Of a stretch of DNA of 64,000 bases, positions 4,527 through 6,756 are shown one piece after another. A program made the position numbers and the translations under genes. Numbering within the stretch: position 1 is the first letter of the stretch; each line of letters starts with the position of its first letter. The notes under the pieces were generated by a model that ran no database searches, had not been told where the DNA came from, and saw nothing but the letters and a program-made list of their open reading frames with translations. The stretch is from Proteiniphilum saccharofermentans (GTDB taxonomy: Bacteria; Bacteroidota; Bacteroidia; Bacteroidales; Dysgonomonadaceae): NCBI RefSeq assembly GCF_900095135.1, contig NZ_LT605205.1, forward strand, positions 1,922,001 through 1,986,000. Reading direction: 5' to 3'.

Positions 4527-5648
4527 TCAATTAATCCCCTCCCACCATTTACTGAAAACCTGTGTAGTGTCGTTCAGATAGACAACTTCGCCGATCCTGG
4601 GAGTCACCAGTGGTATCTGGTCTCCTTGCTCATTCATTTCGGTTATGGTTTTTAACGGCTCGTCCCAGGGATGGTGAGCTAATTTGAATTTAGAAGAATG
4701 GACGGGAAACAAGCGTTTTGCTTTTAGGTCTTTTGCTGCCTGTAATCCCTCCTCGGGCAGTAGATGGATGGCTCGCCACGCCTGATTATACTGGCCGTTC
4801 TCCAGAATCGCCAGATCAAATCCACCGAATTTTTCTCCGATTTCAGCAAAATGGGTGTCATATCCACCGTCGCCCCCGAGATATAATTTTAACTCTTTGG
4901 TTTGTAGAATAAATGCCAGCCAAAGAGTGTTGTTCCTTGAAAAACTCCTGCCTGAAAAATGGCGTGCCGGTGCAGTATACAGGGTGATATTATTGGAAAT
5001 AAACATACTTTCGTTCCAATCTTTCTCGGTAATTTTTCCAGGGTCGAATTTCCAGTACTCTAAATGTGCTCCTACACCCAGACCGCAGACAATGTGCCCG
5101 ATCTTTGGTTTCAATTTCATTATTGTCGGATAATCAAGGTGATCGTAATGATCATGAGTGATAAGCAGATAATCAATTTCAGGCATATCATCGGCCGAAT
5201 ATACATCTGTCCCATTGAATGATTTATTGGAATTAGGTACCGGCGAAGCGTTGCCGCTAAAAACCGGATCGATCAGAAACCGCTTTCCGTTGAGTTGGAT
5301 AAAATAAGAGGAATGGCCGAACCATACCAGCACATTTTCATGGATGGGCAGATTTTTCAAATCTGTCTTCAGAGACGGGATCTCGTCAACGGGTCTTGTA
5401 CGTGGAACTTTCTTAAAAAGGAAATTGAAAAAGATTTTTGCAGGCGATTGATCTCCGCTGAAATTGGGTGTATGACGGATATTCCGGAATTGTCCATCTT
5501 TGTAATTCGGGGATTGTTGTAGTTGCTCGAGTCGTTCCCCGCTTGGAGCTCTGCCGAACTTCGGTTGCCGGATATAGAAAAATATCGTAATGCTCAACAG
5601 CAATACAATGCTTACAAGGATTATCATTATTCGTTTTATCAATTTCAT
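4527..5648 (-). CDS. Membrane-anchored metallo-beta-lactamase-fold hydrolase (NAPE-PLD/UlaG-like)
   Basis: 373 residues. An N-terminal hydrophobic anchor (about residues 7-29) is followed by a metallo-beta-lactamase domain with the metal motif THDHYDHLD (HxHxDH), FGHSSYFIQLNGKRFLIDPV upstream of it, and later ARHFSGR, GGDGGYD and PVHSSKFKLAHHPWDEP. This order matches the NAPE-hydrolysing phospholipase D-like branch common in Bacteroidetes. The substrate cannot be told. Probably a single-gene unit: its promoter box at 5672-5679 is divergent from the erm promoter. The anchor suggests it faces the periplasm. Confidence 0.82.
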   Translation of the reverse strand: MKLIKRIMIILVSIVLLLSITIFFYIRQPKFGRAPSGERLEQLQQSPNYKDGQFRNIRHTPNFSGDQSPAKIFFNFLFKKVPRTRPVDEIPSLKTDLKNLPIHENVLVWFGHSSYFIQLNGKRFLIDPVFSGNASPVPNSNKSFNGTDVYSADDMPEIDYLLITHDHYDHLDYPTIMKLKPKIGHIVCGLGVGAHLEYWKFDPGKITEKDWNESMFISNNITLYTAPARHFSGRSFSRNNTLWLAFILQTKELKLYLGGDGGYDTHFAEIGEKFGGFDLAILENGQYNQAWRAIHLLPEEGLQAAKDLKAKRLFPVHSSKFKLAHHPWDEPLKTITEMNEQGDQIPLVTPRIGEVVYLNDTTQVFSKWWEGIN

Positions 5649-5671
5649 GTAGTAAAGTCGTTATCTACCAT

Positions 5672-5679
5672 CAAAGGTA
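5672..5679 (-). promoter_or_regulatory. Promoter -7 box for the MBL-fold hydrolase
   Basis: TACCTTTG on the - strand, exact TAnnTTTG, predicting transcription start near 5665 and a leader of about 17 nt. It lies 24 bp from the oppositely directed erm box. Confidence 0.65.
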
Positions 5680-5702
5680 TCAGTTTTTAAAGAAAAATCG
5701 TG

Positions 5703-5710
5703 TACTTTTG
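5703..5710 (+). promoter_or_regulatory. Promoter -7 box for the erm transcript
   Basis: TACTTTTG, exact TAnnTTTG, on the + strand. Predicted transcription start is near 5717, giving a leader of roughly 230 nt before the methyltransferase start codon. This is long for these genes and agrees with leader-based control. Confidence 0.65.
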
Positions 5711-5730
5711 TAACAATAAATATACACATT

Positions 5731-5763
5731 ATGTATTTCAGCAGACCGTGGACTGCTATCTAA
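5731..5763 (+). CDS. Candidate leader peptide 1 upstream of erm (MYFSRPWTAI)
   Basis: A 10-codon ORF (ATG at 5731, TAA at 5761-5763) that begins about 14 nt after the predicted transcript start. Its codons overlap two alternative hairpins. One pairs AGCAG at 5740-5744 with CTGCT at 5753-5757. The other pairs GGAC/CTATC (5750-5760) with GATAG/GTCC (5766-5777). The two cannot form together. This is the layout expected of a regulatory leader, but translation is not shown and ORFs this short arise by chance. Confidence 0.35.
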   Translation: MYFSRPWTAI

Positions 5764-5859
5764 GTGATAGACGGTCCTTTGATTATTTTATTTGTTTTCT
5801 CCTTTTTTAAAAGAAGAATACTATTTGTTTTGCATTGTTTTCTTTTTTGAGCTAAGGCA

Positions 5860-5910
5860 ATGCAGTCTTGTTATTTCTGCAGGATAATACTGTCTGTCAC
5901 TTTTCTGTGA
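5860..5910 (+). CDS. Candidate leader peptide 2 upstream of erm (MQSCYFCRIILSVTFL)
   Basis: A 16-codon ORF, ATG at 5860 and TGA at 5908-5910, ending 39 nt before the methyltransferase start. AAGG precedes the ATG. The ATG lies in a possible 7-bp stem (TGCATTG 5831-5837 with CAATGCA 5858-5864). Codons 8-11 lie in the left arm of a long hairpin whose right arm ends 14 nt before the erm ATG. Its size, hydrophobic C-terminal half and overlap with the hairpin resemble the ErmC-type stalling leaders of Gram-positive bacteria. The stalling function is inferred. Confidence 0.45.
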   Translation: MQSCYFCRIILSVTFL

Positions 5911-5935
5911 TCTCTCTTCAGTGCAGTATTCATCC
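5882..5935 (+). promoter_or_regulatory. Hairpin upstream of the erm start codon (candidate translational attenuator)
   Basis: GGATAATACTG (5882-5892) pairs with CAGTATTcATCC (5924-5935), an 11-bp stem with one bulged base. An inner TCAC/GTGA stem (5897-5900 with 5907-5910) can also form. The right arm ends 14 nt before the erm ATG, so the hairpin could hide the translation start region. A ribosome held on the 16-codon ORF would open it. Confidence 0.5.
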
Positions 5936-5949
5936 AAAAGAAATGTACA

Positions 5950-6756
5950 ATGAACAAAAATAGAGTTCCTGTAAGATTTACAGGACAACACTTTATAATA
6001 GATACACAATTAATAGAAGATTCCATCCGCTTAGCTGAAATACAAAAAAATGATCTGGTCCTGGATATTGGTGCAGGCCGGGGATTCCTTACAGGCCATC
6101 TGGTCAGATATTCAGGAAATGTAATAGCTATTGAAAGTGATCCTGGTCTCGTTGCTGAATTAAGAACGAGATTTGCTTTCAACAAAAATATTACTGTCGT
6201 TAATTCAGATTTCAGGAAATTCCGGATACCTCAGAAACAATTCAAGGCAGTTTCTAATATACCTTATGGTATTACCTCTTACATACTTAGATCGTTGATG
6301 TATAATAATACGGAATTTTTTGAAAAAGGGAGTCTGGTAATACAGTTAGAGGCGGCTCAAAAGCTCTTCCGGAGAAGAGTTTTCAATCCCTACGTGCTGT
6401 TTTACCATACGTTTTATGATTTAGAATTAATCTATACTGTTCCTCCGGCTAGTTTTATGCCGCCTCCAACAGTTCAGTCGGCACTGGTGAAGATAAGTAA
6501 AAAACAATCCCCAAGGATAAATATTGAAATGAAAGAGAAATATTTTGATTTCCTTTGCTTCATATTAAGATATCCTGATTTATCGGTACGTACCGCCTTG
6601 AAGGAAATATTCCGAAAGCGGCAAATAAGAGAATTCTCACACAAATATGGTTTGAAGCTGGATGATGTAGTTACCCTATTTCTACCCGAACAATTATCAG
6701 ACTGTTTTGTAGAGATGCTAAGAGTCGTTCCCGATAAATTCCATCCTGAAAATTGA
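5950..6756 (+). CDS. erm: Erm-family 23S rRNA (adenine-N6) methyltransferase, Erm(F)-like
   Basis: Dimethylates A2058 of 23S rRNA and so gives macrolide-lincosamide-streptogramin B resistance in characterised members. 268 residues, about the length of Erm(F). Seen: FTGQHF at 10-15, SAM-binding motif LDIGAGRGFLT (38-48), acidic AIES (60-63), NSDFR (85-89), catalytic NIPYGIT (103-109), then FYHTFYDLELIY and PDLSVRTALKEIFRKRQ as in Erm(F); the end VVPDKFHPEN also matches that group. The N-terminus matches Erm(F)-type proteins closely, but many positions differ, so it is not Erm(F) itself. KsgA is a relative, but the QHF start and C-terminal part favour Erm. Visibly more AT-rich than its neighbours, yet no mobile element flanks it. 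It is a single-gene unit with its own leader and terminator. Confidence 0.9.
   Translation: MNKNRVPVRFTGQHFIIDTQLIEDSIRLAEIQKNDLVLDIGAGRGFLTGHLVRYSGNVIAIESDPGLVAELRTRFAFNKNITVVNSDFRKFRIPQKQFKAVSNIPYGITSYILRSLMYNNTEFFEKGSLVIQLEAAQKLFRRRVFNPYVLFYHTFYDLELIYTVPPASFMPPPTVQSALVKISKKQSPRINIEMKEKYFDFLCFILRYPDLSVRTALKEIFRKRQIREFSHKYGLKLDDVVTLFLPEQLSDCFVEMLRVVPDKFHPEN

What the first reader, a model, noticed from the sequence alone, without database searches (positions are those of the whole stretch)
5703..5950. erm gene with a two-ORF, multi-hairpin leader in a Bacteroidales chromosome
Seen: a promoter box, about 230 nt of leader, a 10-codon and a 16-codon ORF, mutually exclusive hairpins over the first ORF, a stem hiding the start of the second ORF, and an 11-bp stem ending 14 nt before the erm ATG that shares bases with the second ORF. 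Known: Gram-positive ermC-type genes use drug-induced stalling on a leader peptide to open such a stem. Inference: this is a translational (perhaps also transcriptional) attenuator in Bacteroidetes. The peptides MYFSRPWTAI and MQSCYFCRIILSVTFL do not match leader peptides I remember.
Basis: partly seen in the sequence, partly recalled or inferred. Interest (0 to 1): 0.72.

Follow-up and report, generated by a model that had tools for sequence, protein, structure and literature searches.

The report
Drug-sensing leader of an ermF-like gene
A Bacteroidota chromosome carries an ermF-like macrolide-resistance gene behind a short RNA leader whose tiny peptide fits a known erythromycin stalling motif and whose base pairing is conserved in distant relatives, suggesting that this gene family was originally switched on by the drug.

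Summary
The window (genus of Proteiniphilum acetatigenes) has an intact ErmF-like methyltransferase gene (5950-6756) behind a leader with a strong predicted fold (z -4.15). I compared 15 leaders: the window and 14 relatives, 52-75% identical in protein. The 10-codon ORF1 (5731-5763) keeps [R/K]-[P/L]-W in 15 of 15 and reads MYFSRPWT-x-[IV] in 11. This fits the erythromycin arrest motifs XP(W)/+X(W) (PMC6238534). It is exclusive with hairpin A:B over ORF1 and shares four bases with stem C:D, which covers the erm start. Best reading: an ermC-like translational attenuator; a ribosome stalled at RP(W) hides A and frees B. Against: no experiment; A:B lacks covariation; at equilibrium a modelled stall opens the erm start clearly in only 2 of 12 leaders, so opening must be kinetic. 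The leader is shared with mobile ermF, of which several copies have lost it. New variant of a known kind.

The parts
5703..5710 (+). Bacteroidota -7 promoter element TANNTTTG (TACTTTTG; consensus recalled)
   Evidence: present upstream of ORF1 in 12 of 15 leaders, 2.9% of random 60-nt stretches
5731..5763 (+). ORF1, leader peptide MYFSRPWTAI with RP(W) arrest motif (R5 5743-5745, P6 5746-5748, W7 5749-5751)
   Evidence: [RK]-[PL]-W in 15 of 15 leaders; motif from PMC6238534
5750..5760 (+). arm A (segment 1), pairs with B; inside ORF1 from the W codon on
   Evidence: fold; 88.9% of cells paired, covariation not above shuffles
5764..5777 (+). arm B (segment 2); 5764-5775 pairs with C; begins just past the expected edge of a ribosome stalled with P6 in the P site
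5830..5865 (+). linker hairpin (GCATTG/CAATGC) over the ORF2 start; sequence not conserved
   Evidence: fold; linker identity at shuffled level in 8 of 9 comparisons
5860..5910 (+). 16-codon ORF2; judged not functional as a peptide
   Evidence: start codon lost in L004; arm C read in another frame in L006-L008
5882..5900 (+). arm C (segment 3): 5882-5892 pairs with D, 5889-5900 pairs with B
5924..5935 (+). arm D (segment 4), just upstream of the erm start
   Evidence: erm start region 0.29 unpaired in the free RNA
5950..6756 (+). erm gene, 268 aa 23S rRNA adenine methyltransferase, ErmF-like

Best explanation
A macrolide-inducible translational attenuator of the ermC type, built with a different sensor. 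Without drug, ribosomes finish the 10-codon ORF1, hairpin A:B forms, and stem C:D with its outer extension closes the erm start. With drug, the ribosome stalls with P6 in the P site and W7 in the A site (RP(W)), hides arm A, and leaves arm B free. B then pairs with C as C emerges from RNA polymerase, so C cannot fully hold D and the erm start opens. Shown here: conserved ORF1, conserved B:C and C:D pairing, and the spacing. Inferred: the stall in this organism, the opening of the start, and the induction.
For: ORF1 has [RK]-[PL]-W in 15 of 15 leaders, with the W codon 15 nt before arm B in 14 and 14 nt in L018 (counted). XP(W) and +X(W) are erythromycin-dependent arrest motifs with a footprint edge at +17 from the P site (PMC6238534 passages); counted from the first base of the P codon (my assumption), 5746+17 = 5763, and B begins at 5764. 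C is the best downstream partner of B in 15 of 15 leaders, -14.9 to -19.3 kcal/mol; mononucleotide shuffles reach this in 0 of 60 for 8 leaders and 1-2 of 60 for 7. In 9 distinct leaders 106 of 108 B:C cells pair (hand-set, one bulge left out in four); re-dealt C arms reach this in 0.36% of trials. Tool count on 10 leaders: 95.0% paired, covariation 0.157 against 0.112, 4 of 500 shuffles. C:D is 92.2% paired. In the stalled window transcript B:C stands at 0.97-0.99 until the 3' end reaches -13; in the free full-length RNA it is 0.00. Against the window, ORF1+B is 72-92% identical in 9 relatives (shuffled 58-63%) while the linker is at shuffled level in 8 of 9. In overlapping samples of 335, 237 and 101 genomes, hits of the ORF1 model at 60 bits or more lie in 11 distinct genomes, each beside an erm gene or remnant; 8 of the 11 fed the model, 3 did not.
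Against: No experiment. In the stalled full-length RNA B:C has a share of 0.15 in the window, 0.64-0.85 in L007, L010, L019, and 0.00-0.12 in the other 8 of 12 leaders; forcing it costs 1.3 kcal/mol in the window and 6.7-10.6 in L020, L021, L022, L027, L029. The modelled stall raises the unpaired share of the erm start by 0.10 or more only in L010 and L019 of 12 (window 0.29 to 0.33); opening would have to be kinetic. Without any stall B:C already has 0.94, 1.00 and 0.51 in L006, L007 and L010, which predicts leakiness. A:B covariation is not above shuffles (62 of 500), and L006 and L007 break A:B at two pairs. B:C and C:D share only four bases and might partly coexist. C to ATG is barely above shuffled identity in L010 and L018 (68 against 63%, 67 against 61%). 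Few independent lineages; 3 of 12 inner tree branches well supported. Shuffle counts are not probabilities for related sequences.
Confidence: 0.75

Rival explanations
1. The attenuator is real but its sensor is the 16-codon ORF2: stalling in ORF2 opens the stem that it shares with the erm leader.
For: ORF2 overlaps arm C in the window; frames with CRVIL[SP] residues exist in the six ermF-type leaders and L010, and CQVILS in L019, with TTG starts; most other leaders also have some frame over C. ErmB needs a second leader peptide (PMC8274638 passages).
Against: Start ATG is ACG in L004, with no other ATG, GTG or TTG start in that frame; L006-L008 read arm C in another frame; L018 and L021 have only short frames that start within C in that register. 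The shared residues follow from the bases needed for pairing.
Confidence: 0.07
2. Transcriptional attenuation: hairpin A:B followed by the U-rich tract (5778-5806) ends transcription unless a stalled ribosome prevents it, as in ermK-type leaders (type recalled).
For: U-rich stretch after A:B in the window and in L006/L007.
Against: No terminator-like site on the + strand by a simple pattern scan; the tract is missing directly after A:B in ermF-type relatives; the conserved C:D stem covers the start codon, which a pure terminator switch does not need.
Confidence: 0.06
3. The stall on ORF1 mainly protects the mRNA from decay, and pairing is secondary.
For: Proposed for another erm leader (PMC5118997: title and start of abstract seen in the listing).
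Against: Does not explain the B:C and C:D covariation.
Confidence: 0.07
4. No regulation: a conserved promoter and chance hairpins upstream of a constitutive gene, close to the reading given for the ermFU upstream region in PMC4481100.
For: Its authors read the region as a possible promoter (section 15), though they also leave regulation at translation open (section 17).
Against: ORF1+B is conserved while the linker is at shuffled level in 8 of 9 relatives, and the 40 nt upstream are at or below it in 4 and two points above it in 1 of 9; covariation.
Confidence: 0.05

Closest known systems
ermC (ErmCL) translational attenuator of Gram-positive bacteria (four-segment 1:2/3:4 to 2:3 model, recalled)
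   Same: Leader ORF overlapping segment 1; segment 2 able to pair with 1 or 3; segment 4 next to the methyltransferase start; an erm gene downstream.
   Different: The leader peptide is RPW-type, 10 aa, not MGIFSIFVIS (ErmCL motif seen in PMC13410324). A linker of 59-100 nt lies between the B and C pieces. The host is Bacteroidota.
erm(F)/ermFU of Bacteroidota mobile elements
   Same: Same leader: ORF1 as MYFSRPWTSI and arms A-D in L020, L022, L027, L028, L029, L031.
   Different: The window gene is 54% identical to the ErmF-type protein of L029 and lies in a chromosomal setting shared, by eye, with L004. Some mobile copies lack the leader or are separated from it.
Erythromycin arrest motifs XP(W) and +X(W) from inverse toeprinting (PMC6238534)
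   Same: R-P-(W), K-P-(W) and R-L-(W) in the natural leaders.
   Different: Found there in random libraries with E. coli ribosomes; stalling here is untested.
ErmBL (two-leader ermB region, PMC8274638)
   Same: Erythromycin-responsive leader peptide upstream of erm.
   Different: Different peptide; the second ORF here is not conserved.

Membership tests
erm translational attenuator (ermC type) | Short leader ORF between promoter and erm, conserved | tested here: met
   ORF1 in 15 of 15 leaders; TANNTTTG upstream in 12 of 15. The transcript itself was not tested.
erm translational attenuator (ermC type) | Drug-dependent ribosome stalling on the leader peptide | not testable with these tools
   Only a motif match, RP(W)/+X(W), to PMC6238534.
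erm translational attenuator (ermC type) | Segment 2 pairs with 3 as the alternative to 1:2 and 3:4 | tested here: met
   B:C best partner in 15 of 15, covariation 4 of 500 shuffles; C:D conserved. Met as conserved complementarity, not as an observed structure.
erm translational attenuator (ermC type) | Segment 1:2 hairpin under selection as a pair | tested here: inconclusive
   88.9% of cells paired, covariation 62 of 500 shuffles.
erm translational attenuator (ermC type) | erm start closed in the free RNA and opened by the switch | tested here: inconclusive
   Window start region 0.29 unpaired free, 0.33 stalled, 0.53 with B:C forced at a cost of 1.3 kcal/mol; a rise of 0.10 or more by the stall in 2 of 12 leaders.
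ErmCL leader peptide | MGIFSIFVIS-type arrest sequence | tested here: not met
   ORF1 is MYFSRPWTAI; ErmCL motif from PMC13410324.
Erm(F) proper (NCBIfam NF012223) | Score at or above the curated cut-off of 575 | tested here: not met
   327.1 bits.
23S rRNA methyltransferase Erm (NCBIfam NF000499) | Score at or above the cut-off of 212 | tested here: met
   217.6 bits; Pfam RrnaAD 192.8.
ermK-type transcription attenuator | Intrinsic terminator in the leader | tested here: not met
   None on the + strand of 5640-6000; simple pattern scan only.
Known Rfam families | Gathering-score match in the leader | tested here: not met
   0 in the window; six matches below their gathering scores in 5690-5980.

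The most novel reading that the evidence does not exclude
The ermF clade of Bacteroidota is ancestrally drug-inducible through a new class of macrolide-sensing leader peptide, the first natural RP(W)/+X(W) sensor, working by a switch helix that spans about 110 nt in RNAs that start translation without a Shine-Dalgarno sequence (recalled for the phylum). Bacteroidota erm genes would then use at least three arrest modules (RPW here; FVI-like in L012; VDK-like in L035).
Probability: 0.55. Interest if true: 0.72.

Novelty: new variant of a known kind. Interest (0 to 1): 0.6.

Why it matters
ErmF is a widespread macrolide-lincosamide resistance gene of Bacteroidota (recalled), and its upstream region has been read as a possible promoter (PMC4481100, sections 15 and 17). 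A conserved attenuator would mean that inducibility is its original state and is partly lost in mobile copies. It gives a natural, testable case for an arrest motif that I have seen described only from random libraries, and a test of how translational attenuation works in a phylum that rarely uses Shine-Dalgarno sequences (PMC8710568, start of abstract in the listing).

Tried and rejected
ORF2 as sensor: rejected on start-codon and frame loss. The AGCAG/CTGCT hairpin over ORF1: 0 of 8 other leaders aligned. Intrinsic terminator: none found on the + strand. Rfam: nothing at gathering score, six weak matches. Viral contigs: no Erm relative and no ORF1 pattern; phages: no match to the L029 leader DNA (the protein was not sought there). 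Genome contigs gave one relative, P. acetatigenes. Protein searches in three further families, 388 genomes, added one distant gene, L035. Papers: MYFSRPW in no paper. ermF with leader peptide: 9 papers, none of whose listed titles or abstract starts treats an ermF leader. Searches (25 of 35 listed; 15 of 62 listed; none) showed no description of an ermF leader peptide in the listings or in the passages that I opened. The library lacks most subscription papers; two original ermF and CTnDOT papers are not held, and supplementary Table S1 of PMC11264731, which bears on predicted uORFs of erm genes (section 15), was not opened because supplement look-ups are capped at 0. An earlier listing of this uORF is therefore possible.

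Rows dropped: one search used 9 of 15 leaders (without L008, L022, L027, L028, L029, L031); searches used 10 of 15 (without L008, L022, L028, L029, L031); searches used 9 of 15 (without L008, L018, L027, L028, L029, L031); one search used 12 of 15 (without L008, L028, L031); one search compared 9 of 14 relatives. In one search the mask covered the first base of B in L018, so that row is flawed. Of 19 whole genomes with a match at E <= 1e-60, 10 have the intact adjacent leader. G001 has the leader with an erm remnant; G264 has it apart from erm; G039 and G400 lack most of it; G204, G389 and G452 keep only the D-side end; G079 has a decayed gene start without the leader; G086 has another leader. 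Of 16 plasmid records with the gene, 6 hold the adjacent leader (5 read; CP094932 judged from its 100% match).

Full report
What is there. The window is a piece of a 4.41 Mb chromosome of the genus of Proteiniphilum acetatigenes, the one named relative found (its contig has the length of the G001 contig). At 5950-6756 lies an intact 268-aa Erm protein: NCBIfam Erm 217.6 bits (cut-off 212), Erm(F) model 327.1 bits (cut-off 575), so it is ErmF-like but not Erm(F) proper. The sequence upstream of erm in L004, and its downstream aldo/keto reductase-like sequence, match the window's neighbours by eye, so this looks like a resident chromosomal locus in part of the genus; 3 of 39 genomes of the genus, the window's own included, have a match at E <= 1e-60.

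The leader. To see which parts matter I read the upstream DNA of relatives from whole genomes and plasmids. Fifteen have the whole leader next to erm: ten genomes (L001 the window, L004, L006, L007, L008, L010, L018, L019, L020, L021) and five plasmids (L022, L027, L028, L029, L031). Protein identity to the window runs from 75% (L004) over 64% (L006-L008) and 53-55% (most others) to 52% (L018).

ORF1 is the conserved peptide. Eleven of 15 read MYFSRPWT followed by AI, NI, FV, FI (two) or SI (six ermF-type leaders). The others are MYYSRPWTTI (L019), MYFSKPWLSI (L010), MFCLCRLWTSI (L021) and ...MKPWLLSE (L018). The constant core is [R/K]-[P/L]-W. An inverse-toeprinting study with a random library found XP(W) and +X(W), with W in the A site, among the erythromycin-dependent arrest motifs, and tested formyl-MAXP(W) in vivo (PMC6238534, passages; repeated in the review PMC13410324, passages). 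With P6 in the P site (first base 5746) and the +17 edge given there (counting from the first base of the P codon is my assumption), the ribosome would cover up to about 5763, and arm B begins at 5764. The distance from the W codon to B is 15 nt in 14 leaders and 14 nt in L018.

The switch helix. Arm B (GTGATAGACGGT, 5764-5775) pairs over 12 positions, two of them G-U, with 5889-5900. In 15 of 15 leaders the same site is the best downstream partner of B (-14.9 to -19.3 kcal/mol); mononucleotide shuffles of the downstream region reach the value in 0 of 60 for eight leaders and in 1-2 of 60 for seven. In nine distinct leaders (of 15; L006/L007 and L001/L004 are close pairs) 106 of 108 cells pair; one position takes the types T-G, G-T, A-T, T-A and C-G, and T-T in L019; re-dealt C arms reach 106 in 0.36% of trials, and the 99 Watson-Crick cells in 0.84%. 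The alignment tool, without the hand-set bulge, gives 95.0% paired, three pairs with changes on both sides (28 of 500 shuffles) and covariation 0.157 against 0.112 (4 of 500); slid by +3 columns the value is 0.115. Stem C:D gives 92.2% paired, three pairs with changes on both sides, covariation 24 of 500. Hairpin A:B gives 88.9% and no covariation beyond shuffles (62 of 500); L006 and L007 break it at two inner pairs while keeping B:C.

Conservation by segment. Against the window, in nine relatives, ORF1+B is 72-92% identical (shuffled 58-63%) and C to ATG 67-96% (shuffled 56-65%; barely above it in L010 and L018). The linker is at or within two points of the shuffled level, or below it, in eight of nine (not L004). 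The 40 nt upstream are above shuffled in L004, L006, L007 and L010, two points above it in L018, and below it in the other four.

Energies. With a ribosome masked over ORF1, the growing window transcript has B:C at 0.97-0.99 until the 3' end reaches -13 from the erm start, 0.83 at -1, 0.48 at +5 and 0.15 at +11. In the free RNA it is 0.00 at full length, with a transient of up to 0.68 at one shorter length. Forcing B:C costs 1.3 kcal/mol and raises the unpaired share of the start region from 0.33 to 0.53. Against the model, over the 12 leaders: in the stalled full-length RNA B:C exceeds one half only in L007, L010 and L019; it is 0.00 in L020, L021, L022, L027 and L029, where forcing it costs 6.7-10.6 kcal/mol; and the stall raises the unpaired share of the start by 0.10 or more only in L010 and L019. 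In L006, L007 and L010 B:C already has 0.94, 1.00 and 0.51 without a stall. So the switch must be kinetic (co-transcriptional), or other factors help, and this step is inferred, not shown. B:C and C:D share only four bases, so a pseudoknotted intermediate is possible.

Specificity. A 47-nt covariance model of ORF1 and its hairpin has hits of 60 bits or more in 4 of 335 phylum genomes, 2 further of 237 order genomes (3 with the window's own) and 7 of 101 family genomes (samples overlap): 11 distinct genomes, all with an erm gene or remnant beside it. Eight of the 11 supplied rows of the model and match by construction; G001, G088 and G264 did not. The useful result is that no strong hit lies elsewhere. 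In G264 the gene follows after about 1 kb of inserted DNA; in G001 only an erm remnant is left. L018 scores 27.4 bits and is a true leader. The other 12 weak hits of the phylum and order searches (21.7-26.6 bits) showed no erm-like protein as the longest open stretch within 1.5 kb downstream; L050 and L054 are cut by contig ends, so their position was not read exactly. One weak family hit (G028, 30.6 bits) is a decayed copy beside a short erm-like stretch, by eye.

ORF2. Its 16-codon ATG-started frame occurs only in the window among the 15; L004 has ACG at the start, and L006-L008 read arm C in another frame; other frames over C, often with TTG starts, exist in most leaders. Peptide-like similarity in other leaders follows from the bases that pair. 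I therefore reject ORF2 as sensor, with some reserve because ErmB uses a second leader (PMC8274638, passages).

Natural variation. In several mobile or chromosomal ermF copies the leader is missing, shortened, or separated from the gene by an insertion. PMC4481100 reports upstream differences among ermFU alleles and reads the region as a possible promoter, leaving translational regulation open (sections 15 and 17 read). This is described only; no allele was compared for resistance here.

Tree. An Erm tree of 15 rows, one of them a distant KsgA-like row, has 3 of 12 inner branches well supported and leaves the deep forks open. RPW-type leaders sit on 10 of the 14 Erm rows, the long branch L018 included; the other four are L011 (lost), L024 (none seen), L012 (FVI-like) and L035 (VDK-like).

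Conclusion. The evidence supports an ermC-like translational attenuator with a new sensor peptide, shared by the chromosomal gene and by mobile ermF. Stalling, opening and induction remain untested.

Noticed in passing
L012 (G086, erm 46% identical, reverse strand), ORF 240 nt upstream of erm: Leader ORF MGCFSMFVINFRLRSA resembles the ErmCL arrest sequence MGIFSIFVIS (motif in PMC13410324), followed by an inverted repeat seen by eye; a second sensor type in the same family of genomes.
   Followed up: partly
L035 (G658, erm 38% identical), ORF 307 nt upstream of the match start: Leader ORF MDLTNFRYVDKIRRAHGV has R7, D10 and K11 within the R7-K11 stretch critical in ErmBL, which stalls at codon 10 Asp (PMC8274638, abstract start and passages; full ErmBL letters recalled), with an 8-bp inverted repeat right after VDK by eye, not in the minimum-energy fold.
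   Followed up: partly
L005/L003 (P. acetatigenes DSM 18083, G001): Same locus with most of the leader kept, but the leader's 3' end and the first part of erm missing: a remnant. Described only.
   Followed up: partly
L060 (G028, same genus), reverse strand: Decayed copy of ORF1 and hairpin (30.6 bits) next to a short erm-like stretch, by eye: another remnant.
   Followed up: partly
L048 (G264) and L032 (S. faecium plasmid): Whole leader present but separated from ermF by an inserted element. Described only.
   Followed up: no
L019 (G685), just upstream of erm: The start region of the gene is tandemly repeated, by eye.
   Followed up: no
L044, L045, L051: Weak hits of the leader model fall on the starts of large proteins beginning MYV(R/S)RPWT (methylmalonyl-CoA mutase-like, recalled); taken as chance likeness.
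   Followed up: no
L006-L008 linkers: The linker of these leaders holds a small TAGAC/GTCTA repeat; a similar AGAC/GTCT repeat is in ermF-type leaders; function unknown, seen by eye.
   Followed up: no
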